Positions 31,912 to 52,751 of a DNA stretch of 64,000 nt are shown piece by piece. The translations under genes and the position numbers were made by a program. The notes under the pieces are model-generated. The model was not told where the DNA came from and ran no database searches. It saw nothing but the letters and a program-made list of their open reading frames with translations. How positions within the stretch are numbered: the stretch's first letter is position 1; each line of letters begins with the position of its first letter. The DNA is taken from NCBI RefSeq assembly GCF_900129685.1, contig NZ_FQWM01000006.1:1-64000 (forward strand), in the 5' to 3' direction. The DNA comes from Cognatishimia maritima. GTDB taxonomy: Bacteria > Pseudomonadota > Alphaproteobacteria > Rhodobacterales > Rhodobacteraceae.

Positions 31912-32097
31912 AGATATAGCCTGCTCATTCCCTCTTATGGCACGTTTTGCGCCGAATTTGACCTGCTGTCTAATTGGAAAAATCGACAAGATTGCGTCGG
32001 GCATCTGGCAATTGCACGGGCTTTGCTGATTTCAACAACACGATGGCAAATCTATTTGCAGATGGTAAACAGAAACAACCGAGGCAGGGAGCACAAG

Positions 32098-32850: not shown

Positions 32851-32863
32851 AGTGCAGGCAGGC

Positions 32864-34879: not shown

Positions 34880-34978
34880 CTGTCCTGATTTTGCTTTTGC
34901 GCACCTTGCTGTCCACCCCACGCAACGTATTGGGCGGCTGTGGCTCAGTCTGACGAGAAATCACGTCAAATAAACAAA

Positions 34979-35020: not shown

Positions 35021-35686
35021 TTATTGACCCGTCGCGCGCGCCACGACCGAAACAGTTTTGACCAGAATGGAAAGATCAGAGGCAAGGCTCAGGTCATCGT
35101 GGTAACGGTTGTCGTAAAATGCGCGCTCTGCAAAGCTGCTTTCATTCCGTTCTGAGACCTGCCAAAGGCCAGTGATGCCGGGGCGCATGTCGTAGTAGGC
35201 TTTGCCAGGATAGATATCTTTCTGGCAGGGCATCATTGGGCGTGGGCCAACGAGAGACATATCGCCCTTCAGCACGTTCCAAAGCTGCGGAAGTTCATCC
35301 AATGAAGTTTTGCGGATCAAACGTCCCAAAGGTGTGATCCGCGGATCATCGCGCAGCTTTTGCTTTTCGTCCCACTCAGCTTTCGCCGCAGGATTATCGG
35401 CAAGAAAGTTAGCCAGAATACGGTCTGCATCACGCACCATGCTGCGCAGTTTCAGCATATTGAACTGGCGACCATTCTGCCCAATGCGTTTTTGGACGTA
35501 GAAAGGCGATGCGCCCTCAAGCATCAGTGCAACGGCCAGAACCATCACCACAAAACCGACGGGCAAAACCAAAATCATAACAACGCCAACGTCAAAACAG
35601 CGCTTGGCTACGTTGCGGTAGAACCCAGGGGCCAGGTTCCCAAACTGTGTCTTCAGCGCGACATCGCGCTTATCTAAATAGGCCAT
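35021..35686 (-). CDS. ExoY/WcaJ-type undecaprenyl-phosphate sugar phosphotransferase
   Basis: A 221-residue polyprenyl-phosphate hexose-1-phosphate transferase that primes synthesis of the repeat unit. It has one N-terminal membrane helix (VGVVMILVLPVGFVVMVLAV), then the catalytic domain with KLRSM, the DDPRITPLGRLIRKTSLDELPQ stretch containing the essential Asp-Glu pair, and VGPRP followed by RPGITGLWQV. Length is typical of ExoY-like enzymes without the N-terminal four-helix domain. The single gene has its own terminator. Confidence 0.94.
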   Translation of the reverse strand: MAYLDKRDVALKTQFGNLAPGFYRNVAKRCFDVGVVMILVLPVGFVVMVLAVALMLEGASPFYVQKRIGQNGRQFNMLKLRSMVRDADRILANFLADNPAAKAEWDEKQKLRDDPRITPLGRLIRKTSLDELPQLWNVLKGDMSLVGPRPMMPCQKDIYPGKAYYDMRPGITGLWQVSERNESSFAERAFYDNRYHDDLSLASDLSILVKTVSVVARATGQ

Positions 35687-37591: not shown

Positions 37592-38317
37592 TTATCCGAT
37601 GACCGAATTTGGAAACTCGCTGCCAAATTCGACACCTTCGGCAATATGACACAGGCTGATGATCTGTTCACCTGAATTGCTGGTGAGGCCACGGAAGATA
37701 CTGCCCTGTGCAAACCCTTCGACATCGCGCATCAGGCGCGCGTCAAAACGGCCCTGTTTATCAAAAACCACGGACAAGGCTTTGAAATCAATCAAAGTCC
37801 GGCTGACCGTGTATTGGCATTTGTAGATGGCTTCTTTGGCGCTAAAGAAACGCCGCGCCACGATTCCCCGGGATTGAAACGGCAGTTGGCGCAGCCAGGC
37901 CAATTCTTCTGGGCGGCAGATTTCGGAAAACACGTCTGCCTCAAGCGGCAAAGCCGGTTCTACATCCACGCCAAGCGCGCGGAAGCGATCCCGTTCGGCG
38001 ACAATCGCAATGCAGGATTTGTCGTCATGCGTGATGCTGCCAACCACGGCACTTGGCCAAACCGGAGAACGATCCCGATCCATCGGAATGGCGGACGGTG
38101 CGCGCCCCAAGGCCAGCAAGGCCCGTCGCGCTGCCATACGCCCGGCTGCGAATTCCATTTGGCGTGCAGGCACTGCGTTTGAAATTGCAGACGCCTCTGC
38201 CGGCCAAAGGGGTTCTGGGGCTGCGTGGGGAGACGTCACAGCAACGGCCACACCGGCTGGCACTAGAGATCGAACGTTCATTTCAAGCATCGATAGGCGA
38301 CGAAGTTGTGTGGTCAT
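37592..38317 (-). CDS. 4'-phosphopantetheinyl transferase (Sfp/EntD-like)
   Basis: A 241-residue PPTase that loads the 4'-phosphopantetheine arm onto carrier domains. The metal/CoA site is seen in LGVDVEP (Asp and Glu, about residues 118-124) and the second signature in FFSAKEAIYKCQY (about 160-172). Its ATG overlaps the NRPS stop by 4 bp (ATGA), so it is translationally coupled and very likely serves the PCP of the NRPS and the ACP of the PKS, which both keep the acceptor Ser. ATG 38317 lies inside the NRPS end with a GGGAG site. Confidence 0.93.
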   Translation of the reverse strand: MTTQLRRLSMLEMNVRSLVPAGVAVAVTSPHAAPEPLWPAEASAISNAVPARQMEFAAGRMAARRALLALGRAPSAIPMDRDRSPVWPSAVVGSITHDDKSCIAIVAERDRFRALGVDVEPALPLEADVFSEICRPEELAWLRQLPFQSRGIVARRFFSAKEAIYKCQYTVSRTLIDFKALSVVFDKQGRFDARLMRDVEGFAQGSIFRGLTSNSGEQIISLCHIAEGVEFGSEFPNSVIG

Positions 38318-41300
38318 GAGATTTTCTCCCGACGGCGTGCGCGCATCATCCGTCGTTTGGCCATGGTGGATTGGCGGGACTTTGCCTGATCGGGGGACGC
38401 TTGTGTCGGCGTTTGCCCGGCTGCAGCTTCTGCCTGCAGAGTATTGGTTTGTTTTGCGGTTCCCACTTCAAGGCCGCAAATCGCCTCGATCCGCGCAGAC
38501 AATGCGCCGAGTGTCGGGAACCGGAAGATATCGGTGATCGAAACCTGTTTGAAACCAAGCGTATCGCGCATATCGCGGTGCGCCTGAACGGCCAGCAGGC
38601 TGTGCCCGCCAAGGTCAAAGAAATTGTCGCCCGCAGAGATATTATTGACCCCCAAGATACGTGACCAAAGGGCTGCGATCTGTGGCATCACGGCGGCCCC
38701 TTCTGCACCAACTGGGGCGGCGCTTGGCTGCGGCGCAGATTCTGCGCGGCGCTCTTTTGGTGCCGGCAATGCTTTGCGGTCGATCTTTTTATTTGGCGTC
38801 AGCGGGAATTCCGCCACGCGGACAAATCGGCTGGGCACCATGTAACTTGGCAAATGCGCCGCAAGATGCGACCGCATAAGGTCTTCGGCAACAGGGCCTT
38901 TGTGATAGGCCACCAGTCGCACATCGCCGGGGGTGTCTTCGCGGACGATAACAACCGCTTGCGATATCCCCTCAAGGTCTTCGATGCGGCGCTCGATTTC
39001 ACCGAGTTCGATACGGTAGCCACGGATCTTCACCTGGTGATCCACACGCCCAATAAAGTCCAGAACACCGTCCAAACGCCGCCGCACAAGGTCGCCGGTG
39101 CGATAAAGACGCCCCTGCCCCGCTGGCTGACCCGACAAATCATCTGGGACAAACCGATCCTGCGTCAGGTCTTCGCGCCCGAGATAGCCGCGCGTGACGC
39201 CATCACCACCAATCAGCAACTCACCCGCCACGCCAAACGGCACCGGCTGCAGGTTATCGTCCACAACATGGGTCGTTGTATTGGTGATAGGCGTGCCGAT
39301 ATTGGCAATCGCATCTGCGCCCGTGACAGGCGCGGTGGTGGACCAAATGGTTGTTTCAGTTGGCCCGTACATATTTGTAATCTTGGCATCCGTGCGCTCT
39401 GCCAATTGCGCAACCAGTCCCGCGGGCAGTGCCTCACCGCCAAGGAAAAGGTGATCGAGTTGGCGCAGCGCCATTGACGCCTCATCATTCATACAGAACA
39501 TGCGCGCCATCGACGGGGTGCATTGCATATGGGTTACGCCATGGCGCATGATTTGACCGGCGATGGACATATCAGACGGATCAACCGTGACCTCGCCCTG
39601 ACAGGCAGCCACGACCTCGGTCAAGGGGCGCAGCCCCTCAAGCACCACATCGGTGTCGATGCCATAATCGATCAAGCAAGCGATTTCAGTCACGCCAATG
39701 CGCTTCAACTCATCCGCCCGGGCGATACAATCATCGACTGTGCCAAATAGCCCCGAGTCCTCGAAATACCGCTGGAAGGCGAAATCAAGGATGCCGTCCA
39801 TCTCATCATCGCTCAGGCTCCCTAGGTCGAGCTCAAACGGGTTGTTGACGCCTTCGGGTTTCTTAAACGCCGGGAAGGCCCAGGCGTATTGTTTGATCAA
39901 ACCGGCGGCGGAACGCAGGTAATCTTTCATCGGCTCGCGCGCGATGTCGCGGGCGGTTTCGCGATCTTCTGCAATAAAGCTGTGCAGCATCAGCGTGACT
40001 TTGAAGTCTTCGGGGCGATGCCCCGCCTCGCGCAGCGCTGCGTGGTAAAGTTTAATCTTATCCGCAACCTCAGAGATGCTCTGCCCCAAGAGGTGGGTTA
40101 GGATATGAGCCCCATTGCGCCCGGCCTCTTTCCATGTTTCGGGGTTTCCGGCGGTGGTCACCCAGATATCGGGTTCTTTGGACACGGGCCGTGGCTGCGT
40201 CACAACGGCGTGCATTTGACCATCGGCACGCGGGAATTCCACGGCTTCTCCGCGCCAGAGTTTGCGCAGGTCTGCGATTTGCTGGAACATTACCTCTTTG
40301 TTGGCAGGCGGAGTGTTCTCTGGGCGCAGGACAAAATCATCCGGCTGCCAGCCGCTGGCGATGGCCAGCCCGGCCCGGCCATTTGTGAGGTTGTCAATGA
40401 CAGACCATTCTTCGGCGATACGTGCCGTATGGTGCAACGGCGCAACGCAGCTGCCCGCGCGCACACCGATATTGCGCGTGGTCCCGGCCACGGCTGCCCC
40501 CGTCACCGATGGGTTCGGGTATGGTCCGCCAAAAGCGTGGAAATGCCGCTCTGGCGTCCAGACCGCGCAGAAACCGTTTTCGTCGGCAAACTGCGCGCCT
40601 TCCAGCAGCAGGCGGTATTTGTCGCGACCGGCACCGTCGTCGTTGCCCCAATAATAAAGGCTGAACTCCATGCCCGAAGCGCGCCCACGCAGCGGCCCAT
40701 CAGACAGTTGTGTGGCCTTTTCATCGCCAGACAGCACGACCTTATGACCGCGCGACAGCGTGTAGAACAGTTCCAAGACCGAGATATCAAACGAAAGGCT
40801 GGTGACCGCCATCCAAGTCGCGCTGGCGTCTGCCTGTACGCGGTCATCCATACCCGCAAAGAAATTGATGACATTGCTGTGCTCCACCATCACGCCCTTG
40901 GGCCGACCGGTCGAGCCGGAGGTGAACATAAGGTAAGCTAAGTCTGCGCCGGTGACCTGTTCGGCAGGGGTCGCGACCTCATCTGGCGGCGCTTCTGCGT
41001 CGATCAACAACACGCGCGCTGCGGACGTCGGTAGGTCTTTCGCAATCTCACTTTGTGAAACCACCAGTTTCGCGGCGCTGTCTTCCAGATAGATCGACAG
41101 GCGGTCCTGCGGAAAACTCGGGTCCAACGGTAAATAGGCGGCCCCTGCTTTCCAAATCGCAAGGCAGGCCACAACGAGATCGAGTGAGCGACGGCAATGC
41201 ACACCGATGATATCGCCTTTTTCGACGCCTTCGCGGATCAACTTCGTGGCCCAAGCCCCTGCGCGCGCGTCAAGCTCTGCATAGGTCAGCGCCTGATCTT

Positions 41301-43011
41301 CAAAGACCAAGGCGGTGACGTCTGGCGACGCTTGCGCTTGAATGGCAATGGCCGCGTGAACGGTCGCCTGTGGGTCGATGTCTGCTGTTGGTCCCTGTGC
41401 GGCCTTCAGCAGGGCCAGTCGCTCACTTTCTGGAACGGACAGCAATTTCCGGACCGATGTTTGACCCTTGGCAAGTTCTGCAAGGATGTGTTCCAGCCGG
41501 GTTTTCAACAGAATTGCGTGGTCGGCGGTGACGCGCGCCGCGTCATAGCGCAAACAGGATCGGTCTGTATCAAAAACCACCGACACCGCGACGCCTTTGG
41601 AAGGTTCCTTCTCAGCGGACGGTAAAACTTCCAGATCAGGCGTTTGCAGGGCCGACAACTCTGGTGCGCGTGAAATCAGATCAAGCGCGAAGGTGTCTCT
41701 GCCATGTAGAGTCGAAAGGGCGTCCTCAGTATTTTGTCGGAGCGTCGCAACATCATCTTCTGTGGTCGCAAGCAAAGGCATTGGCACCCATGGCGAAAGG
41801 ACGCAATCGGCGATCGAGAGACCAGCATGACGATACGCGATTTGCGTACCATCTTCGGCTCCGCTGAGTTTCGCAAAGAGGTGAACAGCCGCCACACGAT
41901 CCGCCATGGACAGATCTTTGAGACCGTGAATTTCCAAGCTTTGCCAGTCAGTTGTGTCCCCATCTAGATTCTTAACCGCGGCAACCAACGGCAAACGCAA
42001 AGGCGCAAATCCAGACAGGTCTTTCCGCCACGCGGCGTCGTCTGATGCGACCGATTTCATTCGTTTCGTGAGGCCAGCGGCATCGACAGGATAAGACAGT
42101 TTTTGACCAATAAGGGCATCGCTAGCTGCAATTTCAAACGGGTCGCCAGACAGGTCACAAAGTCCACTCAATGTCACAGAGCCATTTGCACATGCGACCT
42201 GAAGCGCGTTTTCATCTGCGCTGACGATTGTACCTGCGTCGCCACCTTCTGGGCGCGGCTCAATCTTACGGACTTGCAGAACTTTGCCGTTTAACCTGAT
42301 TTTCGGCACACAAAGCGGGTTAAAATACGCCCCGTGATCCAGCGCGCGGACAAGTGCGACCAAGGCGTCGCTTGGCTTGGTAAAATCCAGAAATCCTGCG
42401 GCTTCAGGACGTGCGGTGCGCCCGAAGTATGAGCGGTCTTCAAATACTTGCGCCTGACGCGGTAGCACGTCACCAGAAAGCGCCGTGATCACCTCTGGGA
42501 AACTGTCAATCGCGGCTTCAAAGCATTTGGCATTCAGGCTGAGCGCCGTGTCCTTTTCTGTGACGGGAAAGGACCTTTGCACCAGAATATCGCCCGCATC
42601 GACCTTACTTTCGATCAGATGCCACGTGACGCCATGCGTGGTTTCACCATTCAGTCGTGCCCAGACCGGCGCATTCAGACCAGCATAACGCGGCAATGGT
42701 CCGTCGTGGAAATTCACAGCGCCCAAATTGGCCCGCGCCAAGAGATCATCCGGGATAAGATCAAGATTTGCGATGCTGAGCAGCCAGTCAAAGCCCTTGG
42801 GCAAAACCAAATCAGCCAGACGGTCTGCTGTTTCCTGAACCGAGTGCCCTGCATTCTTCGCCCAACGCAATATGTCCGGGTTGCGCGTGGCAATCATGGC
42901 AATTTCATGGCCCGCCTGCAGCCAAAGCTCTGCGCATTGCACCAGCAACGACTCATTCCCGATCAGCACGGCTGAGCGTTTGCTTGAGGCGTCTGCGCGG
43001 TCCAAATTCAT
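38314..43011 (-). CDS. NRPS: formyltransferase, C-domain remnant, adenylation domain split by a luciferase-like monooxygenase, PCP
   Basis: A 1565-residue single-module synthetase. Residues 1-310: methionyl-tRNA-formyltransferase fold with the Asn100, His102 and Asp138 catalytic set. 315-545: only the C-terminal part of a condensation domain; no HHxxxDG. 553-760 and 1140-1415: adenylation domain (MFTSGSTGRPKG, FDISVLE, NMYGPTETTIW, YRTGDLVR, NKKIDRKALP). Between A4 and A5, at 775-1135, sits an FMN-type luciferase-like monooxygenase of the MupA/Atu3671 kind. 1440-1510: PCP with acceptor Ser1471 in DLGGHSLLAV. 1511-1565: a basic tail. Aligned on GrsA the specificity residues read D-I-L-Q-F-G-M-I-W, close to the known glycine code DILQLGLIW. 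Predicted role: starter module for N-formyl, possibly oxidised, glycine. AGGAG precedes the start. Confidence 0.93.
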   Translation of the reverse strand: MNLDRADASSKRSAVLIGNESLLVQCAELWLQAGHEIAMIATRNPDILRWAKNAGHSVQETADRLADLVLPKGFDWLLSIANLDLIPDDLLARANLGAVNFHDGPLPRYAGLNAPVWARLNGETTHGVTWHLIESKVDAGDILVQRSFPVTEKDTALSLNAKCFEAAIDSFPEVITALSGDVLPRQAQVFEDRSYFGRTARPEAAGFLDFTKPSDALVALVRALDHGAYFNPLCVPKIRLNGKVLQVRKIEPRPEGGDAGTIVSADENALQVACANGSVTLSGLCDLSGDPFEIAASDALIGQKLSYPVDAAGLTKRMKSVASDDAAWRKDLSGFAPLRLPLVAAVKNLDGDTTDWQSLEIHGLKDLSMADRVAAVHLFAKLSGAEDGTQIAYRHAGLSIADCVLSPWVPMPLLATTEDDVATLRQNTEDALSTLHGRDTFALDLISRAPELSALQTPDLEVLPSAEKEPSKGVAVSVVFDTDRSCLRYDAARVTADHAILLKTRLEHILAELAKGQTSVRKLLSVPESERLALLKAAQGPTADIDPQATVHAAIAIQAQASPDVTALVFEDQALTYAELDARAGAWATKLIREGVEKGDIIGVHCRRSLDLVVACLAIWKAGAAYLPLDPSFPQDRLSIYLEDSAAKLVVSQSEIAKDLPTSAARVLLIDAEAPPDEVATPAEQVTGADLAYLMFTSGSTGRPKGVMVEHSNVINFFAGMDDRVQADASATWMAVTSLSFDISVLELFYTLSRGHKVVLSGDEKATQLSDGPLRGRASGMEFSLYYWGNDDGAGRDKYRLLLEGAQFADENGFCAVWTPERHFHAFGGPYPNPSVTGAAVAGTTRNIGVRAGSCVAPLHHTARIAEEWSVIDNLTNGRAGLAIASGWQPDDFVLRPENTPPANKEVMFQQIADLRKLWRGEAVEFPRADGQMHAVVTQPRPVSKEPDIWVTTAGNPETWKEAGRNGAHILTHLLGQSISEVADKIKLYHAALREAGHRPEDFKVTLMLHSFIAEDRETARDIAREPMKDYLRSAAGLIKQYAWAFPAFKKPEGVNNPFELDLGSLSDDEMDGILDFAFQRYFEDSGLFGTVDDCIARADELKRIGVTEIACLIDYGIDTDVVLEGLRPLTEVVAACQGEVTVDPSDMSIAGQIMRHGVTHMQCTPSMARMFCMNDEASMALRQLDHLFLGGEALPAGLVAQLAERTDAKITNMYGPTETTIWSTTAPVTGADAIANIGTPITNTTTHVVDDNLQPVPFGVAGELLIGGDGVTRGYLGREDLTQDRFVPDDLSGQPAGQGRLYRTGDLVRRRLDGVLDFIGRVDHQVKIRGYRIELGEIERRIEDLEGISQAVVIVREDTPGDVRLVAYHKGPVAEDLMRSHLAAHLPSYMVPSRFVRVAEFPLTPNKKIDRKALPAPKERRAESAPQPSAAPVGAEGAAVMPQIAALWSRILGVNNISAGDNFFDLGGHSLLAVQAHRDMRDTLGFKQVSITDIFRFPTLGALSARIEAICGLEVGTAKQTNTLQAEAAAGQTPTQASPDQAKSRQSTMAKRRMMRARRREKIS

Positions 43012-44039
43012 TACTCTGCTCCTGCCAGGGCCTTTTTTGCCTTGGGAAATGCGATCTTGCGGGATTTTCGCAGTTGTCCACGAGTCCCCGTTTTCAAGGC
43101 ATGTTTTGCCATATCAATGAGGAAATATTTGGGCTGACCTGTGGATTTCCCCCGCAGCTTGGCGCGCACCGACGCAATGGCGCCGCCGGTCAAATGGGCA
43201 AGCGTCGCGCCCAGCGCATAAAGCCTGCCGTGGTTGACGGTGAAGTAATGCAAACGGGACTCCAGCCAGAAACCGGGGATGCGATCCCATGTTTTCATAC
43301 CTGTCGACACAGACCCGATGTGGGTAACGCAGCTTTCACGCACATAGGCGGTTTTCCAACCCGCCCGCGCAGCCCGTAGGCAAAGGTCGGTCTCTTCGAA
43401 ATACAGAAAGAACGCTTCGTCAAAGAGGCCGATCTGTTCCAACACCTCGCGCCGGATCAGAACCGACGCCCCAGCGCACCAGTCAACGGTGCAGGTGGTT
43501 TCGGGAATCGGCATGGGGACAATTGCGTGTTTCAACAGCTTGCTAACCGGCCCCAAGCGCGCGGCGCCTTCAAATTCGCCTGCCATGGTTGGAAAGCGAA
43601 AGGCCGTTAGATGCGGGTCGCCGTCGGGGCCGTGGATGTAACTGCCAGCCAAGCCCACATCTGAATTGTGATCTAGATAATGCATTAGCGCCTGAATGGC
43701 CCCGTCATGCGGGAAAGCGTCAGAATTTTGGATATAGATATAGTCTGGCAAGTGCCCATCGATACCAGTGGCAAGTCCATGCGTGATCCCGACATTATTG
43801 CCTGCACCAAACCCGCCATTGCGCCCGGATTGAAGGACCTCAACCCGGTCGGACGCCCAGCCTTTTGCAACAACCGCCGCCGACAGATTTTCAAAAGAGC
43901 CATCGCGGCTGTCGTTGTCCACGATCAGGATCTTGCCCGCGATCCCATCCATTTCAGCCACCGTCGCCACTGCGGCCTGCAAAGTCATGTCGGCGGTGCG
44001 GTAGTTCAGAATGATGGCCAGAACGGTTTTCTGCGGCAT
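43011..44039 (-). CDS. Glycosyltransferase family 2 within the PKS-NRPS operon
   Basis: A 342-residue GT2 resembling rhamnosyltransferases: VLAIILNYRTADMTLQA at the N-terminus, ILIVDNDSRDGSFENL, GRNGGFGAGNNVG (about residues 74-86), IYIQNSDAFP as the DxD-like site and FFLYFEETDLCLRA near 215. It begins 2 bp after the PKS stop and its stop shares one base with the NRPS start (TAATG), so it is translationally locked between the two megasynthases. This argues that it either glycosylates the PKS-NRPS product or that the product modifies the glycan. Donor sugar unknown. Confidence 0.9.
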   Translation of the reverse strand: MPQKTVLAIILNYRTADMTLQAAVATVAEMDGIAGKILIVDNDSRDGSFENLSAAVVAKGWASDRVEVLQSGRNGGFGAGNNVGITHGLATGIDGHLPDYIYIQNSDAFPHDGAIQALMHYLDHNSDVGLAGSYIHGPDGDPHLTAFRFPTMAGEFEGAARLGPVSKLLKHAIVPMPIPETTCTVDWCAGASVLIRREVLEQIGLFDEAFFLYFEETDLCLRAARAGWKTAYVRESCVTHIGSVSTGMKTWDRIPGFWLESRLHYFTVNHGRLYALGATLAHLTGGAIASVRAKLRGKSTGQPKYFLIDMAKHALKTGTRGQLRKSRKIAFPKAKKALAGAE

Positions 44040-44041
44040 GG

Positions 44042-47000
44042 CTACGCCGCCCCCTTGCGGAAAGGCAGGATCACGGCAGAGCCACGTTCGGCTTTTTCGA
44101 TCTCTTTGCGAATATGGGCCGCCAGCACACGCACGTTGGGTTCCAGCACCATACTGTCGTGGTCGCCCGGCACCTCGGTCACGTGGAGGTCATCCAAGAA
44201 CTGCCCCCAATCATTGTCATGCAAGACATACGTCCGTTCTGAATTCACCCAACGGTCTGCACCGACCTTCCAGGTGCCGACCAATGGCGGGCGATAAAGC
44301 GCAACGCGGCCTGTCCAAGGCTGCACGTCATACTTCGGCAGGGCGCGGTAGAAGGCAGCTTCGATCTCTGCATTGTGGAAATCTGTGCTGTCCTCTGCGG
44401 TCACCTCTGGCGCGCGGCGTTTGGACAGTTCCCACAGAACGCGGTTCTTGACCCATTTCCACAGAAACGCCGGGCCTTCTTTCTTAAGTTCCAACCACTT
44501 GATGCGCAGGCGGTCCTCTCGGGTCAGTGCGCGACGCACGGGCAAAGGCGTATCAAGCATCACCAAAAGCGAGACCTCCTCGCCCTCGGCTTTAAGCTGC
44601 CGCGCCAACTCATAGGCGGTCAAGCCGCCGCCTGAGAAGCCACCAAGCATGTAGGGGCCATGGGGCTGGACTTGCCGCAGTTCCACAAGGTAATCGCGCG
44701 CCGCCTCCACCAGATCGTCATGCGGAGCAGCGTCGCCAAACAACCCGCGCGCTTGCAGCCCGTAAAACGGCCGGTCCGCCCCAACAAGATGGGCAAGGTG
44801 GCGCAGGTTCAACACATTGCCATACATCCCCGCCACGAGGAAAAACGGTGTTTTGTCCGAGTCGCCAGCCTGATGCATCGGCACGATATGCGTATAGCGC
44901 CGTTCTGGTGCGATGGCAGTGGCGGCTTGGGCCGGGGCATCTGTCGCCGTTGCGGCCTCTTCGCCGATGCGATCAATGATCAGGGCTGCGCAGGCTTCAA
45001 CCGTAGGGGCCTCAAACAGGACCGAGATCGGGAACTCTGTGCGATAGGCCTTTTTCACCATCGCAAACAGCCGCACCGCAATCAGAGAATGGCCGCCAAG
45101 ATCAAAGAAGTTGTCCTGAATTCCGACCTGTTCGATGCCCAGAAGGTCCTGCCAAAAACCGGTCAGCGTGCGCTCGACATCATTGCGGGGTGCAACGAAA
45201 TCAACGTCGAGATCAGGGCGTTCAAATCCCTGACTGTCTTGATCGGCTGCGGCACTCACATCGTTAACCTGCCAGAGCAGGTCATCAACATCGACGGAAC
45301 TGACAACAACGCTGCTTTGGCCAAGGGCCATGGCACGGCGCAGGGCCTCTGGCCCCTCATCAGCGGTGATGCCCATAGCGAGCGTGTCTTGCAGCCTTTG
45401 TTCATTCGCTGACAGCGCGTGACGTTGTGCTGGCGTATCCCGCACCAATTCAGCTTCGCGCGGTGCAGGCAGCGATTGGGGTGAAAACGCGCTTTCCAAA
45501 CGTCGGAGGGTCAGGCCATCGACCTCGACACAGACGCGACCTTGGGTGTCGGCAAGCACAATGTCAAAGCTGACGCTGCCATCAGACGACGCACCGCGCA
45601 CGGCTTTAACCCAGCTGTGCACGGTTGTGGGCAAAGTGCCATAATGACGCAACGCCCCGTAGGAAACGGGCACCCAAAGGTGGCGGGCTGTGTAGCCTTC
45701 GATCAGCGACATCGCCCAGCCGGTCCCGATGTCCAAGAGACCCGGATGAAGCGGAAGCGTCTGTGACGCCTTTGCCAAATCATCATTCAGCGACAGCACC
45801 GCAATGCCCTCACCCGCGCCCAGCGCGTATTGGCGCAGGACATGCCAATGTTTACCAAAGGCCAAATGGGCCTCTTGCGGGGTCTTGAGGTGGCCGGTTT
45901 CGGCTTGGTCTCGTTGTGTATTGCAGCGCGCTGAAATCTGATCAAAGTCAAACGCTTGCGCAGGTTTCAAAGCGGCCATAGCAACCCTGCCCTCGGCGTG
46001 ACGCAGGAATGCGTCGCCGTGGTCAGACAAAACCTCGACCGCATAGCCACGGTCATCCGGACGCAGGTGGATTTGCACTTGACGTGAGGCGCTATCAGCG
46101 ACGTGCAGCGCACGCAGGAAGGTCAGGTCGCGCACCTCATAGGCGGCGTTTTCATTCAGCGCCTGCATCGCCTCAGCGATCAGTTCCAAATATCCTGTGC
46201 CGGGCATAATAGCAGCACCCTCGCGGGTGCGGTGCTGGTCTAGCATCCAGCAATTTGCCGTGGAAACCTCGGTTTGGAAGACGATTGTGCCGTCGCCATC
46301 CACGCGCACGCTTTGCAATGTCGGCGATGTGATATCCCGCGCAGTGCCTTTGTTGTTCTGGGTCGCGTCGCCCGCGATGGCATCAGCAGCCATGCCGACA
46401 TCGGACCAAATGCCCCAGTTCACCGCCGTGACCTTGGTTTTGTCGCCCTTGCGGCTGTCAGCATAGGCATTGAGGAAGGTGTTGGCCGCCACATAATCGA
46501 CCTGCCCTGCGGGCGTCAGGACGGTTGATGTGGAAGAAAACAGCGTCAGAAACTCCAGATCGCCATCCGCGAAAACCTGATCAAGCACCATTGTGCCGTG
46601 GATTTTTGGGGCCAGCACGTCTTCGACCTGTGCAGCCGTTTTGCTGAGCAAAGGCGCATCGTCAATTGCCCCCGCCGCATGGATCACACCATGGATCGCG
46701 CCGAATTCGTCGCGCAGGGTGTCAGCCGCCGCGCGCATGTCCGAGATGTTGCAAACATCCGCTGTCAACACGCGCAGCTTGCCGCCCAATTGCTCCAAGC
46801 TTTGCACGGTACGGATCAGACGCGCGTCTTTGTCGGTTTCATTGCTGAAGGAAGTGATCCGCAACCAGTCTGACCGGTCTGGCAATGCACGCCGCCCAAG
46901 AAGTGCGACATTGGCCCCGGCGCTAAGCATTTCACGCGCCACGCTGACGCCGATGCCACCGAACCCGCCGGAGATCAGGTAGGTTTTGCCTTTCTCCCAG

Positions 47001-50000
47001 TGTGTTTCCCGGCCTTCGGGCAAGGCAACTGCTTTATGAGACAATTCAAACCGTTTGCCGTCACGATAGGCCGCTTGGAAGGACCGAGGCGGTGCGATCA
47101 GGTCTTCGAGCAAGCAGTCATCCAAACCGTCGGTTTCAGCAACATCTATGCTGGCGCAGGTCATGCCCTGAACCTCGCGCGGCAAAACCCCAAGCGGGCC
47201 GCGGATGGTTGCCTTCTCAGGATAGGAGAGCGGCGCGCGACCCAAAGAGGCCGCGCCATTGGTCACACAGGTCACATGCACGGGCTGCGGCAGGTTTTCA
47301 TCAATGATCGCTTGCCCAAGGAAAAAGAGCGAATGAAAGCCCTGTTCCAGATTGCGATGGAAGAAACTGCTGCCGGGGCGGAAGGTTTCAGATGAGGTCA
47401 AAAGCCACATGTGTAGAATCCGGTTCGGGGCCTGCCCGCGTGCAATCAGTTCTTGCAACAACTGGTCGTAGCCTTCGCGCCCCCGTTCGGGGGAAAGCAC
47501 ATAGCGCGTATCAGACAGGCGGCCAAAGGCATCGCCGGTCACGACTTCGATCACGGAATGACCTGCTTCGCGCAGGGTCGCGGCAATCTTTGCGCCCTGC
47601 CCGGCTTCATCCACGAAAATCAGCCAAGAACACGGCTCCGTCAGCGCGAGGTTCTCAAGGGCGTCAACATCATATTCCGCCAGTCTTGGCGTCCAGACCG
47701 GGCGGTAGCCCCAGTTAGCGATGTCATCCTGCCGCGCGATATCGCGTGTTCCGGCCGCACCTGTCTCCTTCCGTTCAATGAAGTAGCGAGAGCGCTGGAA
47801 TTGATAGCTGGGCAGCAACGCCTTGTTGCGGCGCGCGTCGCCCCAGATTTGCGACCAATCAAACTGCCCACCACAGGCCCAAAGCCGCCCGAGGACCGAC
47901 ATGAAATATAGATCATCCGCGATCTCTTGCTCGGGGTGGCGCAGCGTTGAAATTGAACGCCCCTGCCCGACATCGGCGTGCATTCCAGCCAGCGAACTAA
48001 GCGCCTTGCCCGGTCCGACTTCAAGGAAGATGCGCCCAGGAACGCGGGCGAGTTCGCTGATACAATCTGAAAAGCGCACCGTACCCCGCAAATGGCGGAC
48101 CCAGTAGTCTGGGCTTGTGGCCTCCTCGGTGCTTAGTGCCTGACCGCTGCGGTTTGAGATGATCGGGATTTGCGGCGGGCTCAACTTGATGCTGCTGAGG
48201 TAGTCGCCGAAGTCCTTCAGGATCGGCTCCAACATCCGCGAATGCGCCGCGATGTTGATGGGAATGCGCTGCGCTTCGATATCTTGCGCAGCAAGCGATT
48301 GTTGAAGAACCTCAAGCGCTGCATCTGGCCCGGTCACGACAGTCAGTTCCGGCGCATTTTCCCCTGCAATGTCCAAATCATCGCCCAGCATTGGCTCTAG
48401 GGCGGCGCGGGACAATGGCACAGACAACATGCCACCTGCAGGCACGCGCTCAAACAGTTGGCCGCGCAGATACACAAGACCAATGCAATCCTCAAACGAC
48501 AGCACACCAGCCAGACAGGCCGCAGTGTTTTCGCCCATGGAATGCCCGACCAGCGCCTTTGGCGTTACGCCCCAGCTTTGCCAAAGCTGCGCCAGCGCGT
48601 ATTCCACAATCATAATCAGCGGCAGCTGAACAGAGGGGCGTTTCAGTTCCGCCTCTGCGGCCTCACGGCTCATGTCATTTGCCAGCCAAAGCGCCTTGGC
48701 ATCATAGTCTGCAAGGCCATCCAAAATTGCCAGCCCGGCATCCATCCAATCCTGAAACACCGGCTCTGTTTCATAAAGGTCCTGCGCCATCTGCACGTAT
48801 TGCGCGCCGCCGCCGGGGAACATGAAAACGACATCAGGCGTGTCAGCTTCGGCGCTGTGCGTAAAGACGCGGCGTTGGTCGTTCGCTTCGAGCAATTCTG
48901 CCGCTTCAAGTGGCGTTTCCGCAACCACCACGCGGCGTTTTTCAAAAGCACGCCGCCCCTTTTGCAAGGTGTATGCCACATCCGCCAGATCCACCTCTGG
49001 GTTGGCACGCAGGTAGGCCGCAAGGGCTGCGGTGTTTGCATCCAGGGCTTTGGTCGTGCGGCCTGAAATCGTCAGCAATTGAAATGGCCAGTCCGACGGT
49101 TCAGAGGCCGCGCGCGCGGGCGCTTCCTCTAGCACGACATGTGCGTTGGTCCCGCCAACGCCTAATGAATTCACGCCAGCCCGGCGCGGACCGCGATGGG
49201 CGGGCCAGACGCGGAGCGTATCGTTGACCTGAAAGGGGCTGGTTTCAAAATCAATAACCGGGTTTGGCTTTTCAAACCCAAGGCTGGGCGGGATCTGATG
49301 ATGATGCAGCGACAGTGCGGTTTTGATCAGGCTGGCCGCGCCTGCCGCAGTATCAAGGTGGCCGATATTGGTTTTGACCGACCCAACCCGGCAATAACCG
49401 CTTTCATCCGTCGTCTCTCGAAAGGCTTCGGTCAGCGCTGCGATTTCGATCGGGTCGCCGATATAGGTGCCGGTCCCGTGGCATTCTACGTAGTCGATTG
49501 TATCCGCTGTGACATCCGCCATGGCCAATGCATCAGCCACGGCATTTGCCTGCCCCCCAACCGAGGGGGCGAGATAGCCCGCTTTGTCAGACCCATCGTT
49601 GTTGACCGCAGAGCCACGAATAACGGCCCAGATATGATCCCCATCTGCCAGCGCATCCGCCATGCGGCGCAAGACAACCACACCGGCCCCGCTGCCAAAA
49701 ACTGTGCCTTCAGAGCGATGATCAAAGGCGCGGCAATGCCCGTCGGGTGATAGGATTTCGCCTTCTTCATAAAGGTATCCGCGTTTGTGCGGCATCTCGA
49801 TGGTCACGCCACCTGCCAATGCCATGTCGCATTCACCGTTCAACAGCGACTGGCAGGCATAATGCGCCGCCACCAAAGACGTGGAACAGGCGGTCTGCAC
49901 CGAAAGGCTTGGCCCTTTCAGGTCAAGGATATGACTGAGACGCGTGGACAGGAAATCTTTGTCATTGCCGGTGTGGCGCAGCAGGAACATGCCTGTGCTG

Positions 50001-50458
50001 TCGACCAGATCGCGGTTGGAGCAAAGGTTGAAATAGAAATAGCTGCCCATGCCGCAGCCGCCAAAGACGCCAATGGGGCCATCAAAATGCTCTGGCATAT
50101 GGCCCGCGTTTTCCAAGGCTTCCCAGCTGACTTCAAGGAACTGCCGGTGCTGCGGGTCCATAATCGCCGCTTCTTTGGGGCTGAGGCCAAAGAATTCTGC
50201 ATCAAAGTGATCAAAAGCCTCCAGAACCGAGGCTGATTTCACGTAGTTTTTGCGTTGCAGACGGGCCTTGCTTTCACCGGCTTCTAGCAGTTCAGCGTCG
50301 GTCAAAGGGGTGATGCACTCCACCCCGTCGCGCAAGTTCTGCCAATAGGCGTCCAGCGTCGCCGAGCCGGGCAAATGCGCTGCCATCCCTACGATTGCAA
50401 TGTCGTTATCTGTCCAGTCGCCTGAGCCTTGATTGTTTATCATAGTCCACTCGATCAT
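44042..50458 (-). CDS. Type I polyketide synthase KS-AT-KR-DH-ACP-TE
   Basis: A 2138-residue single-module PKS. KS about 17-445 (Cys191 in TACSTS, His327 in ECHGTGT, His367 in TNIGHLD). AT about 545-860 (Ser640 in GHSMGE, His739 in AAHS; extender probably malonyl, but not certain). KR about 915-1350 including its structural half (GGFGGIG at 1164-1170, Tyr1322 and Asn1326). DH about 1395-1660, placed after KR (His1409 with MPGTGYLEL; Asp1576 in HPGLLDIG). ACP about 1755-1830 (Ser1791). Thioesterase about 1870-2125 (Ser1942 in GFSGGG, Asp1969, His2100). All catalytic residues are present. The product would be a one-extension, reduced and dehydrated acyl chain released by the TE. ATG 50443 is an alternative start. 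Confidence 0.95.
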   Translation of the reverse strand: MIEWTMINNQGSGDWTDNDIAIVGMAAHLPGSATLDAYWQNLRDGVECITPLTDAELLEAGESKARLQRKNYVKSASVLEAFDHFDAEFFGLSPKEAAIMDPQHRQFLEVSWEALENAGHMPEHFDGPIGVFGGCGMGSYFYFNLCSNRDLVDSTGMFLLRHTGNDKDFLSTRLSHILDLKGPSLSVQTACSTSLVAAHYACQSLLNGECDMALAGGVTIEMPHKRGYLYEEGEILSPDGHCRAFDHRSEGTVFGSGAGVVVLRRMADALADGDHIWAVIRGSAVNNDGSDKAGYLAPSVGGQANAVADALAMADVTADTIDYVECHGTGTYIGDPIEIAALTEAFRETTDESGYCRVGSVKTNIGHLDTAAGAASLIKTALSLHHHQIPPSLGFEKPNPVIDFETSPFQVNDTLRVWPAHRGPRRAGVNSLGVGGTNAHVVLEEAPARAASEPSDWPFQLLTISGRTTKALDANTAALAAYLRANPEVDLADVAYTLQKGRRAFEKRRVVVAETPLEAAELLEANDQRRVFTHSAEADTPDVVFMFPGGGAQYVQMAQDLYETEPVFQDWMDAGLAILDGLADYDAKALWLANDMSREAAEAELKRPSVQLPLIMIVEYALAQLWQSWGVTPKALVGHSMGENTAACLAGVLSFEDCIGLVYLRGQLFERVPAGGMLSVPLSRAALEPMLGDDLDIAGENAPELTVVTGPDAALEVLQQSLAAQDIEAQRIPINIAAHSRMLEPILKDFGDYLSSIKLSPPQIPIISNRSGQALSTEEATSPDYWVRHLRGTVRFSDCISELARVPGRIFLEVGPGKALSSLAGMHADVGQGRSISTLRHPEQEIADDLYFMSVLGRLWACGGQFDWSQIWGDARRNKALLPSYQFQRSRYFIERKETGAAGTRDIARQDDIANWGYRPVWTPRLAEYDVDALENLALTEPCSWLIFVDEAGQGAKIAATLREAGHSVIEVVTGDAFGRLSDTRYVLSPERGREGYDQLLQELIARGQAPNRILHMWLLTSSETFRPGSSFFHRNLEQGFHSLFFLGQAIIDENLPQPVHVTCVTNGAASLGRAPLSYPEKATIRGPLGVLPREVQGMTCASIDVAETDGLDDCLLEDLIAPPRSFQAAYRDGKRFELSHKAVALPEGRETHWEKGKTYLISGGFGGIGVSVAREMLSAGANVALLGRRALPDRSDWLRITSFSNETDKDARLIRTVQSLEQLGGKLRVLTADVCNISDMRAAADTLRDEFGAIHGVIHAAGAIDDAPLLSKTAAQVEDVLAPKIHGTMVLDQVFADGDLEFLTLFSSTSTVLTPAGQVDYVAANTFLNAYADSRKGDKTKVTAVNWGIWSDVGMAADAIAGDATQNNKGTARDITSPTLQSVRVDGDGTIVFQTEVSTANCWMLDQHRTREGAAIMPGTGYLELIAEAMQALNENAAYEVRDLTFLRALHVADSASRQVQIHLRPDDRGYAVEVLSDHGDAFLRHAEGRVAMAALKPAQAFDFDQISARCNTQRDQAETGHLKTPQEAHLAFGKHWHVLRQYALGAGEGIAVLSLNDDLAKASQTLPLHPGLLDIGTGWAMSLIEGYTARHLWVPVSYGALRHYGTLPTTVHSWVKAVRGASSDGSVSFDIVLADTQGRVCVEVDGLTLRRLESAFSPQSLPAPREAELVRDTPAQRHALSANEQRLQDTLAMGITADEGPEALRRAMALGQSSVVVSSVDVDDLLWQVNDVSAAADQDSQGFERPDLDVDFVAPRNDVERTLTGFWQDLLGIEQVGIQDNFFDLGGHSLIAVRLFAMVKKAYRTEFPISVLFEAPTVEACAALIIDRIGEEAATATDAPAQAATAIAPERRYTHIVPMHQAGDSDKTPFFLVAGMYGNVLNLRHLAHLVGADRPFYGLQARGLFGDAAPHDDLVEAARDYLVELRQVQPHGPYMLGGFSGGGLTAYELARQLKAEGEEVSLLVMLDTPLPVRRALTREDRLRIKWLELKKEGPAFLWKWVKNRVLWELSKRRAPEVTAEDSTDFHNAEIEAAFYRALPKYDVQPWTGRVALYRPPLVGTWKVGADRWVNSERTYVLHDNDWGQFLDDLHVTEVPGDHDSMVLEPNVRVLAAHIRKEIEKAERGSAVILPFRKGAA

Positions 50459-50538: not shown

Positions 50539-51927
50539 TCAAGGCGAATTAAGGGCGAATACCGCTGCCACATGGTCTTGGTTGAGCCACAGCGCCAAAC
50601 CCATCAACGCAAAGCCCAAAGCTGCAAATAAAAAATCGTGCAACGGGTCCCAGGTTCCTTGGTGGCGCGCAAGCCAAACCACCACTGGATAGACTGCCAC
50701 CATGGCCAGCCCATGCCCCACCAGCGCCCCAGCAAGGCCGCCGATCTCTACCCCCAACCAAAGTCCTGCAATCAACAGCACGGTCCGCGCCAGCGTCAGC
50801 ACAAAGAAGCGCCTTGTGTCGCCTGTCGCCAAGGCCGCCTGATCGTAGGTCAGAACAATCACCTGAGGCAGTTGGGCACAGGCAATCATTACCAGAATTC
50901 CGCCTGCGAGCCTATAGCGCGGGTCATAGAGCAGTTCGATGATCGGGCCTGACCACAGCGCCACCACGGAAAGTGCTGAAAGAAGCACAAAGGACAGGAG
51001 TATGCGCATCTTGCGAAGCTTTAGAAAATTGCTGCGGGATCCCTTTGGCGGGCGTTCGCGATAAATCGGGATCAATATTCGGCGTGTGACTGTCCCGCCC
51101 AACAGCAAAGGGAAACTCGCCAAAAAGAAGCCGATATTGTAAATACCCAGCGTCTCGAGCTGCAGATATTTGCCCAAGATGATCTTGTCGCCCTGGCTTA
51201 GGAAAAACCCTACAGCCGTACTGAGGAACACCCATTTCCCAAAGTTGATCAATTCAACAGAGGCCGTCTTGTCCCATGCCAAGCGATTGCGATGACCTGG
51301 CAAAAACCGTGTCAAAAGAATAAGTTGCACAACCGCGCCGAGAATTCCGCTGATCACAAGGGCCCAGACGCTCTGTAGGATATAGGCCGCGATGATCGCG
51401 ACGATCAGCGCGCCGATCTGTGTAACAAGTTCGATGATCGTTAGCCGCCCGAAATTGAGATGGCGGTTCGCTGTGTCCAGACGCGTTGGATTGAAGGCTG
51501 CAATAAACAGCGTGATGCCAATCGCCGGAAGCAGCTGCGTCAACAGCGGCGCATCAAAAAAATGCGCAGCAGGCGCAGCGAGAACGAAAGTCACCATCCA
51601 AAGGATAAACCCGCGCGCAATCTGGATGGTCCAAGCCGTGTCGAGAAACTTTGGATCATCGCCGCGTTTGCTTTGCATGATCGCGGGTGTGATCCCAACA
51701 TCTGAAAAGTTGTTCAGACCCTGCATGAACACGTAAACCAAAGCCATCAGACCAAAGGCTTCCGGGAACAACAATCGCGTCAGGATCAGGTTGGACGCAA
51801 GCCTAAGGACCTGACTGCCGCCAAAGCTGATCAGCGTCAGCGCGCCACCGCGCATCGCTTTGCTGGCCAGCCCCTCTCCGCGCAGCAGGTTGTTCCAACG
51901 TGCACCGACGCCGCCGAAGATCATCAT
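50539..51927 (-). CDS. Wzx-like oligosaccharide flippase (PST/MATE-type)
   Basis: A 462-residue protein with about 12-14 membrane helices; the N-terminal segment SFGGSQVLRLASNLILTRLL is typical of polysaccharide-transport family flippases. It would move undecaprenyl-linked glycan across the inner membrane. ATG overlaps the upstream GT2 stop (ATGA). The PKS starts 80 bp downstream on the same strand without a terminator between them, so the flippase is probably cotranscribed with the PKS-NRPS genes and might also move the hybrid product. Confidence 0.9.
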   Translation of the reverse strand: MMIFGGVGARWNNLLRGEGLASKAMRGGALTLISFGGSQVLRLASNLILTRLLFPEAFGLMALVYVFMQGLNNFSDVGITPAIMQSKRGDDPKFLDTAWTIQIARGFILWMVTFVLAAPAAHFFDAPLLTQLLPAIGITLFIAAFNPTRLDTANRHLNFGRLTIIELVTQIGALIVAIIAAYILQSVWALVISGILGAVVQLILLTRFLPGHRNRLAWDKTASVELINFGKWVFLSTAVGFFLSQGDKIILGKYLQLETLGIYNIGFFLASFPLLLGGTVTRRILIPIYRERPPKGSRSNFLKLRKMRILLSFVLLSALSVVALWSGPIIELLYDPRYRLAGGILVMIACAQLPQVIVLTYDQAALATGDTRRFFVLTLARTVLLIAGLWLGVEIGGLAGALVGHGLAMVAVYPVVVWLARHQGTWDPLHDFLFAALGFALMGLALWLNQDHVAAVFALNSP

Positions 51928-52751
51928 CGGCCGCGGCTCCAGTCGGCTTGGTCATTGTCTTGCGTTAGCCGCACCATCAAAGCCACTGAGGCATAGACCA
52001 AAAAGCTGAACGGATAGCTGAGCGCGGTCATCATCAATTGCGACCGCGCGTAGGGCCGTTTATCGTCATTCTTGATCAAGTGTGGGAACCGATCTGCGAT
52101 TTCGGTCACGCCCCGGTTTTGACGTCGGCGCACTTTGATCAAGTTGCGCCAACCTTCGGCAATGGGCCAGACATAGGTGCCGGGCACACCAAACCGTTCA
52201 CGCGGCTTGAAGTGCAGCCGCACGTAGGTGTCATCAGAGATGATGTCCGGAAACTCCCCCCAACGCGCACGGCCAGCGGTATTGACCGCAAACAGACCTG
52301 CTCCCGGCACGGATTTCGCCATGAAAGGCACACGCGACCAAAATCGCCCATAGGCGCGGCTGATCCGACTAGCGGCGGCCATTTGCAATGTGCCGCTGGC
52401 CCAAGCAGGCGTTTCGCGATCTAATGCGCGTTCCAGCTGATGGATGAGGCGTTTAGAGACCTGAACATCTGCATCCAGATAGACGCGAACATCACCCGTC
52501 GCCTGATGATCCCCCACGTTCAACGCATGCAGCTTGTTGCCAATAGTCAGGTCAATAACCACCATCTCCCACTGTTTGGCCTCTGCAAGCCGCACATAGC
52601 GTTCTGCAATGGCCACGGTTCGATCTTGGCAGCCGTTGGCGACCACTATGACCTGCGCTTCGTCCACGCGCTCTGATGCCAGCACGGCTTCTAGGCATGC
52701 GCTGATCCAGGATTCCTCATTGCTTGCCGGAATGATGATGCTCGTTTTCAT
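51924..52751 (-). CDS. Glycosyltransferase family 2
   Basis: A 275-residue GT2: TSIIIPASNEESWISACL, VIVVANGCQDRT, the DxD-like RVYLDADVQVS (about residues 90-100), SDDTYVRL and a QNRG segment near 214. A C-terminal hydrophobic helix suggests membrane association. It is the first gene of the long minus-strand run that ends at 36194 and is divergent from the GT4 gene at 52867, so the operon promoter lies in 52752-52866. Confidence 0.88.
   Translation of the reverse strand: MKTSIIIPASNEESWISACLEAVLASERVDEAQVIVVANGCQDRTVAIAERYVRLAEAKQWEMVVIDLTIGNKLHALNVGDHQATGDVRVYLDADVQVSKRLIHQLERALDRETPAWASGTLQMAAASRISRAYGRFWSRVPFMAKSVPGAGLFAVNTAGRARWGEFPDIISDDTYVRLHFKPRERFGVPGTYVWPIAEGWRNLIKVRRRQNRGVTEIADRFPHLIKNDDKRPYARSQLMMTALSYPFSFLVYASVALMVRLTQDNDQADWSRGR

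What the first reader, a model, noticed from the sequence alone, without database searches (positions are those of the whole stretch)
38314..50458. PKS, glycosyltransferase, NRPS and PPTase in one translationally coupled operon
PKS stop to GT2 start is 2 bp, GT2 stop and NRPS start share one base, and NRPS stop and PPTase start overlap by 4 bp. All lie on the minus strand. A glycosyltransferase locked between two megasynthases is unusual and suggests a glycosylated N-formylglycine-polyketide or a glycan carrying such a group. Seen: the gene order, overlaps and domains. Inferred: the product.
Basis: partly seen in the sequence, partly recalled or inferred. Interest (0 to 1): 0.88.

Follow-up and report, generated by a model that had tools for sequence, protein, structure and literature searches.

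The report
Assembly line inside an exopolysaccharide locus
A peptide-polyketide assembly line, probably making a small glycine-derived group, is wired into the genes for a surface polysaccharide in about a third of the sampled genera of one bacterial family, which hints at sugar polymers decorated by natural-product chemistry.

Summary
In detail: four coupled minus-strand genes, PKS, GT2, NRPS, PPTase, with a 2-bp gap and 1-bp and 4-bp overlaps. The NRPS is a loading module: formyltransferase, half a condensation domain by fold, a glycine-code A domain interrupted by a MupA-type monooxygenase, and a carrier; the same insertion in myxothiazol/melithiazol lines alpha-hydroxylates glycine. And the operon lies in an exopolysaccharide locus. 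PKS-GT2-NRPS order occurs in 59 of the 80 best relatives; 142 of 395 family genomes match the NRPS start. GT2, Wzy-like and SGNH/glycosidase-like genes track it (43/43 vs 3/77; 42/43 vs 7/77; 42/43 vs 6/77); a control gene does not. Best reading: the pair builds a short formylglycine-, hydroxyglycine- or glyoxylyl-derived polyketide that decorates the polysaccharide. Product and attachment are inferred. Roseobacter PKS/NRPS hybrids are in print; no listing from my ten paper searches tied them to exopolysaccharide.

The parts
44042..50458 (-). Type I PKS, 2138 aa, KS-AT-KR-DH-ACP-TE
   Evidence: KS, AT, KR Tyr, ACP Ser and TE Ser motifs kept in 71 of 71 aligned rows (window included)
49124..50407 (-). 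PKS ketosynthase (KS) domain
   Evidence: TACSTS in 71 of 71 rows
48011..48829 (-). PKS acyltransferase (AT) domain
   Evidence: GHSMGE in 71 of 71 rows
46400..46984 (-). PKS ketoreductase (KR), placed before DH
   Evidence: Tyr of DY(V/I)AAN in 71 of 71 rows
45491..46309 (-). PKS dehydratase (DH)
   Evidence: His motif seen in the 21 and Asp motif in the 45 of 71 rows that one search lists; the other rows were not printed
44978..45169 (-). PKS carrier (ACP)
44129..44773 (-). PKS thioesterase (TE); the end is approximate
43011..44039 (-). GT2 glycosyltransferase, 342 aa
   Evidence: present in 43 of 43 monooxygenase-NRPS genomes and 3 of 77 others
38314..43011 (-). NRPS loading module, 1565 aa: FT - half C - A(MOx) - T - basic tail
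42112..42975 (-). NRPS formyltransferase (N and C parts)
   Evidence: fold matches Fmt/ArnA; N100, H102, D138 in 80 of 81 rows
41404..42078 (-). Half condensation domain (no Pfam match)
   Evidence: AlphaFold model pLDDT 92.3; 45 of the 50 listed PDB rows are by title condensation-type domains or NRPS proteins with one, the other 5 rows (HtmB2-CT, CmnI) do not say
38752..41340 (-). Adenylation domain in two halves, code DILQFGMIW
39613..40665 (-). MupA/Atu3671-type FMN luciferase-like monooxygenase inserted between A4 and A5
   Evidence: TIGR04020, 478 bits against cut-off 244; position from motifs
38488..38682 (-). NRPS thiolation (T) domain
   Evidence: Ser in 81 of 81 rows
38317..38394 (-). 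Basic C-terminal tail, possible docking element
   Evidence: Motif in 67 of 81 rows
37592..38317 (-). 4'-phosphopantetheinyl transferase, 241 aa
36241..37554 (-). Wzz chain-length protein
35021..35686 (-). Polyprenyl-phosphate sugar transferase type (Bac_transf)
33368..34921 (-). Wzy-like protein, 517 aa (no Pfam match; called Wzy-like by appearance and position)
31837..32850 (+). WecG/TagA-type glycosyltransferase
32852..33364 (+). Serine-acetyltransferase-like hexapeptide transferase
   Evidence: NCBIfam below cut-off
30787..32004 (-). Gfo/Idh/MocA oxidoreductase
29555..30823 (-). EpsE-like GT4
   Evidence: NCBIfam below cut-off
28593..29558 (-). GT2
26491..28593 (-). Gfo/Idh/MocA-SDR fusion (nucleotide-sugar type)
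25671..26426 (-). Tyrosine autokinase of EPS type
   Evidence: below cut-off
50539..51927 (-). Wzx-type flippase
51924..52751 (-). GT2
52867..54087 (+). GT4
54073..57045 (-). SGNH-like / glycosidase-like / calcium-repeat protein, 990 aa
   Evidence: present in 42 of 43 monooxygenase-NRPS genomes and 6 of 77 others

Best explanation
The operon encodes a two-protein assembly line that supplies an unusual small acyl group to the exopolysaccharide made by the surrounding locus. Shown by sequence: domain content, intact active-site motifs, conserved coupling, and co-inheritance with polysaccharide genes. Inferred: the PPTase arms both carriers. The NRPS loads glycine, formylates it, and alpha-hydroxylates it with the monooxygenase inside its A domain. 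The product is N-formyl-hydroxyglycyl thioester or, if the carbinolamide breaks as in myxothiazol, a glyoxylyl thioester. The NRPS lacks a full condensation domain and a TE, and the PKS lacks a loading domain but ends in a TE, so the NRPS primes the PKS. The PKS adds one malonyl unit, reduces and dehydrates it, and its TE releases or transfers a roughly four-carbon acyl group. The locus GTs, flippase and Wzy-like polymerase would then build it into the repeat unit; the neighbouring SGNH-like/glycosidase-like protein may trim the decorated polymer.
For: Domains and motifs. MOx precedent: passages of PMC10204066 and PMC11342130. EPS setting in the window; in relatives: at least 2 of 6 EPS machinery genes in 58 of 60 loci of 24 kb or more; in annotated plasmids of Parasedimentitalea marina and Aminobacter sp. 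MSH1 (the only two of the 28 matching records opened). Phylogenetic profile over 120 genomes: GT2 43/43 vs 3/77, Wzy-like 42/43 vs 7/77, SGNH/glycosidase-like 42/43 vs 6/77, control gene 34/43 vs 53/77. PKS found in 42 of 42 searched NRPS-bearing relatives, same strand, 3140-3511 bp from the monooxygenase. NRPS-then-PKS order: G629, and a second copy in G113. Chemical sequence: G078 lacks monooxygenase and DH and has lost the KR tyrosine motif, but keeps FT, A, T, KS, AT, ACP and TE.
Against: No acyltransferase for moving the group onto a sugar was identified, unless the TE or the hexapeptide protein does it. Co-location and co-inheritance could also come from co-regulation of a free metabolite with the polysaccharide. 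Outside the family, G629 has the NRPS-PKS pair, but no EPS protein of this window matched its about 38 kb of held DNA and the sampled Pfam annotation showed only an epimerase and a DegT aminotransferase as sugar-type genes. G089 keeps matches to the EPS genes while its megasynthase has lost KS, AT, T and FT motifs, so the polymer does not need the group there. G089 also lacks the monooxygenase but still has DH matches, so the joint loss in G078 is one genome and not a rule. The glycine code and the A4/A5 anchors use motif mapping recalled from the field, not a computed predictor. AT specificity was not resolved (AAHS motif). NRPS-first order is two cases among many PKS-first ones.
Confidence: 0.5

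Rival explanations
1. A free small secondary metabolite (for example a signal or metal-binding N-formyl compound) is made by the PKS/NRPS pair and only co-regulated with biofilm polysaccharide; GT2 belongs to the polysaccharide.
For: The TE could hydrolyse a free acid. GT2 is not between PKS and NRPS in 10 of 69 same-strand loci. Genome papers list Roseobacter PKS/NRPS genes as secondary metabolism (PMC4062626 passages; PMC10608839 passages). G629 has the pair without recognised EPS machinery.
Against: No exporter, receptor or resistance gene was recognised among the annotated genes of the coupled unit; 58 of 60 long loci hold at least two EPS machinery genes, and GT2 and Wzy-like genes are rare where the NRPS is absent (3 and 7 of 77).
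Confidence: 0.27
2. One reading: a glycosylated formylglycine-polyketide, with GT2 glycosylating the PKS/NRPS product directly.
For: GT2 is between the two genes in 59 of 69 same-strand loci and overlaps them in more than half of the readable junctions.
Against: GT2's best NCBIfam match is a rhamnosyltransferase family, below its cut-off, and GT2 is not between the genes in the Tabrizicola/Rhodobacter-type loci. No nucleotide-sugar gene is among the four genes.
Confidence: 0.1
3. The pair makes an acyl primer or anchor on which the polysaccharide is started, a role I recall being discussed for the RkpA/WcbR capsule PKS.
For: PKS genes rkpA/wcbR lie in capsule loci (PMC3908369 passages).
Against: A single KR-DH module without enoylreductase, beside an amino-acid loading module; a Bac_transf sugar transferase is present in the window, so initiation on polyprenol phosphate is expected.
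Confidence: 0.08

Closest known systems
LgrA initiation module (linear gramicidin; FT-A-T)
   Same: N-terminal formyltransferase before A-T; best solved relative of the NRPS by sequence
   Different: Here a half condensation domain separates FT and A, a monooxygenase interrupts A, the code is glycine-type, and the partner is a PKS
Myxothiazol/melithiazol MOx-interrupted glycine A domain (protein names MtaG and MelG recalled; function from passages)
   Same: Flavin monooxygenase inserted between A4 and A5 of a glycine A domain
   Different: There the extended glycine is cleaved to release an amide; here the domain sits in a loading module with a formyltransferase. No sequence of those proteins was compared
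RkpA/WcbR capsule PKS (PMC3908369 passages)
   Same: Type I PKS inside a polysaccharide locus
   Different: No NRPS partner is mentioned in the passages read; no sequence comparison with RkpA was made
Roseobacter PKS/NRPS hybrid genes (PMC4062626 Inhi_1972 and Inhi_1974; PMC10608839 Figure 6 legend)
   Same: Possibly the same genes, a guess from kinship and from the one-gene gap in the locus numbers
   Different: The passages read treat them as secondary metabolism and do not link them to a polysaccharide
Oxazolomycin/conglobatin formylglycine starters (recalled only)
   Same: Formylglycine passed to a PKS
   Different: No cyclodehydratase was recognised among the annotated window genes (not searched for specifically), and there is one PKS module only

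Membership tests
Formylating NRPS initiation module (LgrA type) | N-terminal formyltransferase with N-H-D catalytic residues | tested here: met
   80 of 81 rows; fold. The role of the three residues is recalled
Formylating NRPS initiation module (LgrA type) | No active condensation domain before A | tested here: met
   No Condensation Pfam match at 0.01; only a half-size C-like fold
MOx-interrupted glycine A domain (myxothiazol/melithiazol type) | Luciferase-like monooxygenase inserted between A4 and A5 | tested here: met
MOx-interrupted glycine A domain (myxothiazol/melithiazol type) | Glycine specificity | tested here: inconclusive
   Code DILQ(M/L/F/V)GMIW in 80 of 81 rows, one with an unread base; glycine reference code recalled; no activity data
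MOx-interrupted glycine A domain (myxothiazol/melithiazol type) | Alpha-hydroxylation followed by cleavage to an amide and glyoxylyl thioester | not testable with these tools
   Needs in vitro assay
Wzx/Wzy-type exopolysaccharide locus | Flippase, polymerase, chain-length protein, initiating sugar transferase, GTs | tested here: met
   the polymerase has no Pfam match and is assigned by appearance
RkpA/WcbR capsule PKS | Sequence kinship to RkpA/WcbR | not tested
   No RkpA sequence was compared
Two-protein NRPS-to-PKS assembly line | NRPS lacks a full C domain and TE; PKS lacks a loading domain and has TE | tested here: met
Two-protein NRPS-to-PKS assembly line | Physical hand-over from NRPS to PKS | not testable with these tools
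   A basic tail in 67 of 81 rows and NRPS-first gene order in two cases are only hints

The most novel reading that the evidence does not exclude
The FT-A(MOx)-T module acts as a glyoxylyl-thioester generator: formylation of carrier-bound glycine followed by alpha-hydroxylation splits off formamide, and the PKS extends the glyoxylyl group to a reactive 4-oxo (aldehyde) acyl unit. Attached to the exopolysaccharide, this would give a polymer carrying natural-product aldehydes able to cross-link or adhere, in about a third of the sampled genera of the family.
Probability: 0.12. Interest if true: 0.88.

Novelty: new variant of a known kind. Interest (0 to 1): 0.62.

Why it matters
If right, a large share of the Rhodobacteraceae (family named from the titles of the relatives) decorates a surface polysaccharide with a group made by NRPS/PKS chemistry, a kind of glycan modification that none of my paper listings described. 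It gives a function to PKS/NRPS genes that genome papers list as secondary metabolism, it predicts a testable chemical mark (glycine-derived carbon in the polysaccharide), and the natural variants G078 and G089 offer ready comparisons.

Tried and rejected
Considered and set aside: a chance arrangement (rejected by 59 of 80 loci); a cyclodehydrated oxazole starter (no such enzyme recognised; recalled chemistry); a GT2-specific glycoside product (see rivals). One search's family clustering showed no further near-universal gene of clear function. window:57058-58008 I judge not to be a gene: no Pfam match, and its printed translation does not look like the SGNH-type gene that stands at that place in relatives. 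L087 (G214) first looked like a monooxygenase-free variant by frame length, but its match spans the monooxygenase (query 469-1193) and instead lacks parts of the half C domain and of the A domain; it was dropped from the variants. L088, from the same genome, carries a full-length NRPS. One search undercounted GT2 between the genes because longest-ORF starts were used; one search replaced it. Of the five loci that classes as without PKS, L007 shows a PKS end cut by the contig edge just before GT2; L053 and L060 are contigs under 8 kb. Of four non-family matches, G629 has the NRPS-PKS pair; G651, G590 and G603 are other NRPS lines or cut contigs. Paper searches: searches were on this gene pair and its setting, on enzyme and PKS precedents; lists were capped where many papers matched (20 of 42, 10 of 197). 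Only passages were seen of PMC4062626, PMC11225332, PMC4359443, PMC10608839, PMC10204066, PMC11342130, PMC8383342 and PMC3908369; PMC5872303 held none of the terms sought. No paper was read whole. The PDB sequence search with GT2 gave no match at 0.001. The search for related loci kept the best 80 of 148 confirmed loci, so the 80 are chosen by similarity to this NRPS.
Full report
Observation. The ORF list confirms the four minus-strand genes and their spacing: PKS 50458-44042, 2 bp, GT2 44039-43011, shared base, NRPS 43011-38314, 4-bp overlap, PPTase 38317-37592. The stated range omits nearly all of the PPTase. Upstream, GT2b 52751-51924 and Wzx 51927-50539 overlap by 4 bp and lie 80 bp before the PKS; Wzz follows the PPTase after 37 bp. 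The coupled unit therefore looks like part of a longer exopolysaccharide (EPS) operon, though no transcript was measured.

Domains. Pfam and NCBIfam give the PKS as KS-AT-KR-DH-ACP-TE, with DH after KR. The NRPS is formyltransferase, A, T, with TIGR04020 (MupA/Atu3671 luciferase-like monooxygenase, 478 bits, cut-off 244) at residues 783-1133. The split of the A domain lies after the FDISVLELF stretch and before the CTPSM stretch, which in motif terms recalled from the field is A4-A5. The residues at the specificity positions read DILQFGMIW; across 81 aligned rows (window included) the code is DILQ(M/L/F/V)GMIW in 80, and one row has an unread base. The reference glycine code DILQLGLIWK is recalled, not computed. 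FT residues N100, H102 and D138 are kept in 80 of 81 rows, T serine in 81 of 81. PKS motifs for KS, AT, KR tyrosine, ACP serine and TE serine are kept in 71 of 71 rows; DH motifs were printed only for part of the rows.

The stretch 312-536 of the NRPS had no Pfam match. Its AlphaFold model (pLDDT 92.3) matches condensation-type structures: of the 50 listed PDB rows, 45 are by title condensation, cyclisation, X or epimerase/condensation domains or NRPS proteins known to hold one, and 5 (HtmB2-CT, CmnI) do not say in the title (best E 7e-7). It is about half a domain long. So there is no complete condensation domain, and the module should load, not condense.

Precedent. Passages of PMC10204066 state that in the myxothiazol and melithiazol clusters the flavin monooxygenase is inserted between a4 and a5 of the A domain, hydroxylates a glycyl residue at the alpha position, and that cleavage then leaves an amide and a glyoxyl thioester. 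PMC11342130 passages describe the same MOx domain within glycine A domains. Here the same kind of insertion sits in a formylating loading module.

Setting. The window around it encodes Wzz, a Bac_transf sugar transferase, Wzx, a Wzy-like protein, WecG/TagA and EpsE-like glycosyltransferases, other GTs, nucleotide-sugar-type oxidoreductases and an EPS-type tyrosine autokinase (several NCBIfam matches are below cut-off). Of 80 loci from the genome collection (best 80 of 148 found), 69 have the PKS upstream on the same strand, 59 of these with GT2 between; in 6 (Hyphomicrobium and Rhizobium types) the PKS is convergent or divergent; 5 were classed without PKS, of which L007 has a PKS end cut by the contig edge. 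The PPTase is adjacent in 71 of 80. Of 60 loci of 24 kb or more, 58 hold matches to at least two of six EPS machinery genes; the other two (L073, L081) hold only the Wzy-like one. On an annotated plasmid of Parasedimentitalea marina the PKS, GT2 and NRPS stand beside a CpsD/CapB-type kinase, a sugar transferase and a WecB/TagA/CpsF glycosyltransferase; on one of Aminobacter sp. MSH1 a divergent PKS and NRPS-PPTase stand beside glycosyltransferases, an O-antigen ligase family protein, a polysaccharide export protein and a flippase. These are two of 28 matching plasmid records.

Prevalence and co-inheritance. In 120 same-family genomes (each of a different genus), 43 have the monooxygenase over cut-off; the 45 matches over cut-off all lie in open frames of 1202-1877 aa. 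PKS was found in 42 of 42 of the other bearing genomes; the distance from PKS match to monooxygenase is 3140-3511 bp, median 3334.5, same strand in 42 of 42, as in the window (3380). GT2 (E 1e-60) occurs in 43 of 43 bearing and 3 of 77 other genomes, SGNH/glycosidase-like (E 1e-60) in 42 of 43 and 6 of 77, Wzy-like (E 1e-40) in 42 of 43 and 7 of 77; a control gene from the same window, a Tle1-like protein (E 1e-60), in 34 of 43 and 53 of 77 (Fisher p 2e-29, 1e-24, 8e-24, 0.29). These p values ignore shared ancestry. With the FT-linker query (E 1e-40), 142 of 395 family genomes match, 129 of 351 genera; G089, which has a diverged copy, fell below this threshold. In the wider class 9 of 289 match at E 1e-30, five of them of the own family.

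Natural variants. Of the three non-bearing genomes with GT2, G105 has the NRPS apparently cut by contig ends. G078 (L085) has no monooxygenase, a PKS without DH and without the KR tyrosine motif, and the other domains with their motifs. I read this as loss of one chemical sequence, hydroxylation, reduction, dehydration; it is one genome. G089 (L082, L083, L086) has matches to 14 genes of the locus (the Bac_transf gene was not among them), but its NRPS has no monooxygenase and lost FT and T motifs, and its PKS is in two open frames with KS, AT and KR motifs lost and DH still matched. So the EPS locus can outlive the line, and monooxygenase loss is not always joined by DH loss.

Order of action. 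The NRPS has no full C domain and no TE; the PKS has no loading part and has a TE. In G629 an NRPS of 1548 aa is followed after 22 bp by the PKS, and a second copy in G113 also has the NRPS first. The NRPS ends in a basic tail motif in 67 of 81 rows. The two nearest solved PKS chains by sequence are 8xju and 8xjy; the sequence of 8xjy is also in entry 8xjz, which holds a peptide synthetase chain that is itself among the NRPS hits. These agree with hand-over from NRPS to PKS but do not prove it. Against a strict EPS link outside the family, no EPS protein of the window matched the about 38 kb held around the G629 pair; the annotated neighbours include an epimerase and a DegT aminotransferase but also many unrelated genes.

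Reading. The likeliest account is a decoration pathway: a short formylglycine-, hydroxyglycine- or glyoxylyl-derived polyketide put onto the EPS repeat unit. Shown: architecture, conservation, EPS linkage in the family. Inferred: substrate, product, attachment. Missing: a recognised transferase. Ten paper searches listed no paper that links this gene pair to EPS as far as titles, abstracts' beginnings and the passages opened show; the library is open-access only and long lists were capped. PMC4062626 already lists PKS Inhi_1972 and NRPS Inhi_1974 in Phaeobacter inhibens, citing a 2007 study, and the PMC10608839 passages report shared PKS/NRPS clusters with a synteny figure in close genera; genes of this kind are known, the role is not.

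Noticed in passing
window 54073-57045 (-): 990-aa protein: FGNSL-type SGNH-like start, then a domain with invariant SNE and EGG motifs like clan A glycosidases (recalled), then a calcium-repeat end; only a marginal Pfam match. It tracks the NRPS in 42 of 43 versus 6 of 77 genomes.
   Followed up: partly
L086 190-3516 and 4519-10512 (G089): A megasynthase with lost KS, AT, T and FT motifs still keeps very long open frames beside matches to the EPS genes; why the frames stay open is unexplained.
   Followed up: partly
L085 198-9831 (G078): Monooxygenase, DH and the KR tyrosine motif are missing together.
   Followed up: partly
window 45491-46984 (-): DH lies after KR in the PKS, an order unlike most modular PKSs (recalled); the relatives align without rearrangement.
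   Followed up: no
L097 (G629) and L101 (G113 second copy): NRPS-first arrangements of the pair; L101 also lies near wzx and GT matches, L097 does not.
   Followed up: partly
L095 6480-14603 (G590): A 2707-aa formyltransferase NRPS frame between two further NRPS frames in a 1.8-Mb alphaproteobacterial genome.
   Followed up: no
L087 4843-8259 (G214): A second, shortened NRPS copy of 1138 aa that keeps the monooxygenase but lacks parts of the half C and A domains.
   Followed up: no
L051: Record titled Exiguobacterium profundum carries a Rhodobacteraceae-type locus; probably a mislabelled MAG.
   Followed up: no
window 10396-11475 (-): Tle1-like phospholipase-domain protein, common in the family (87 of 120); used only as a control.
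   Followed up: no
window 18952-20553 (-): TPR-sulfotransferase fusion about 5 kb from the nearest gene of the EPS locus.
   Followed up: no
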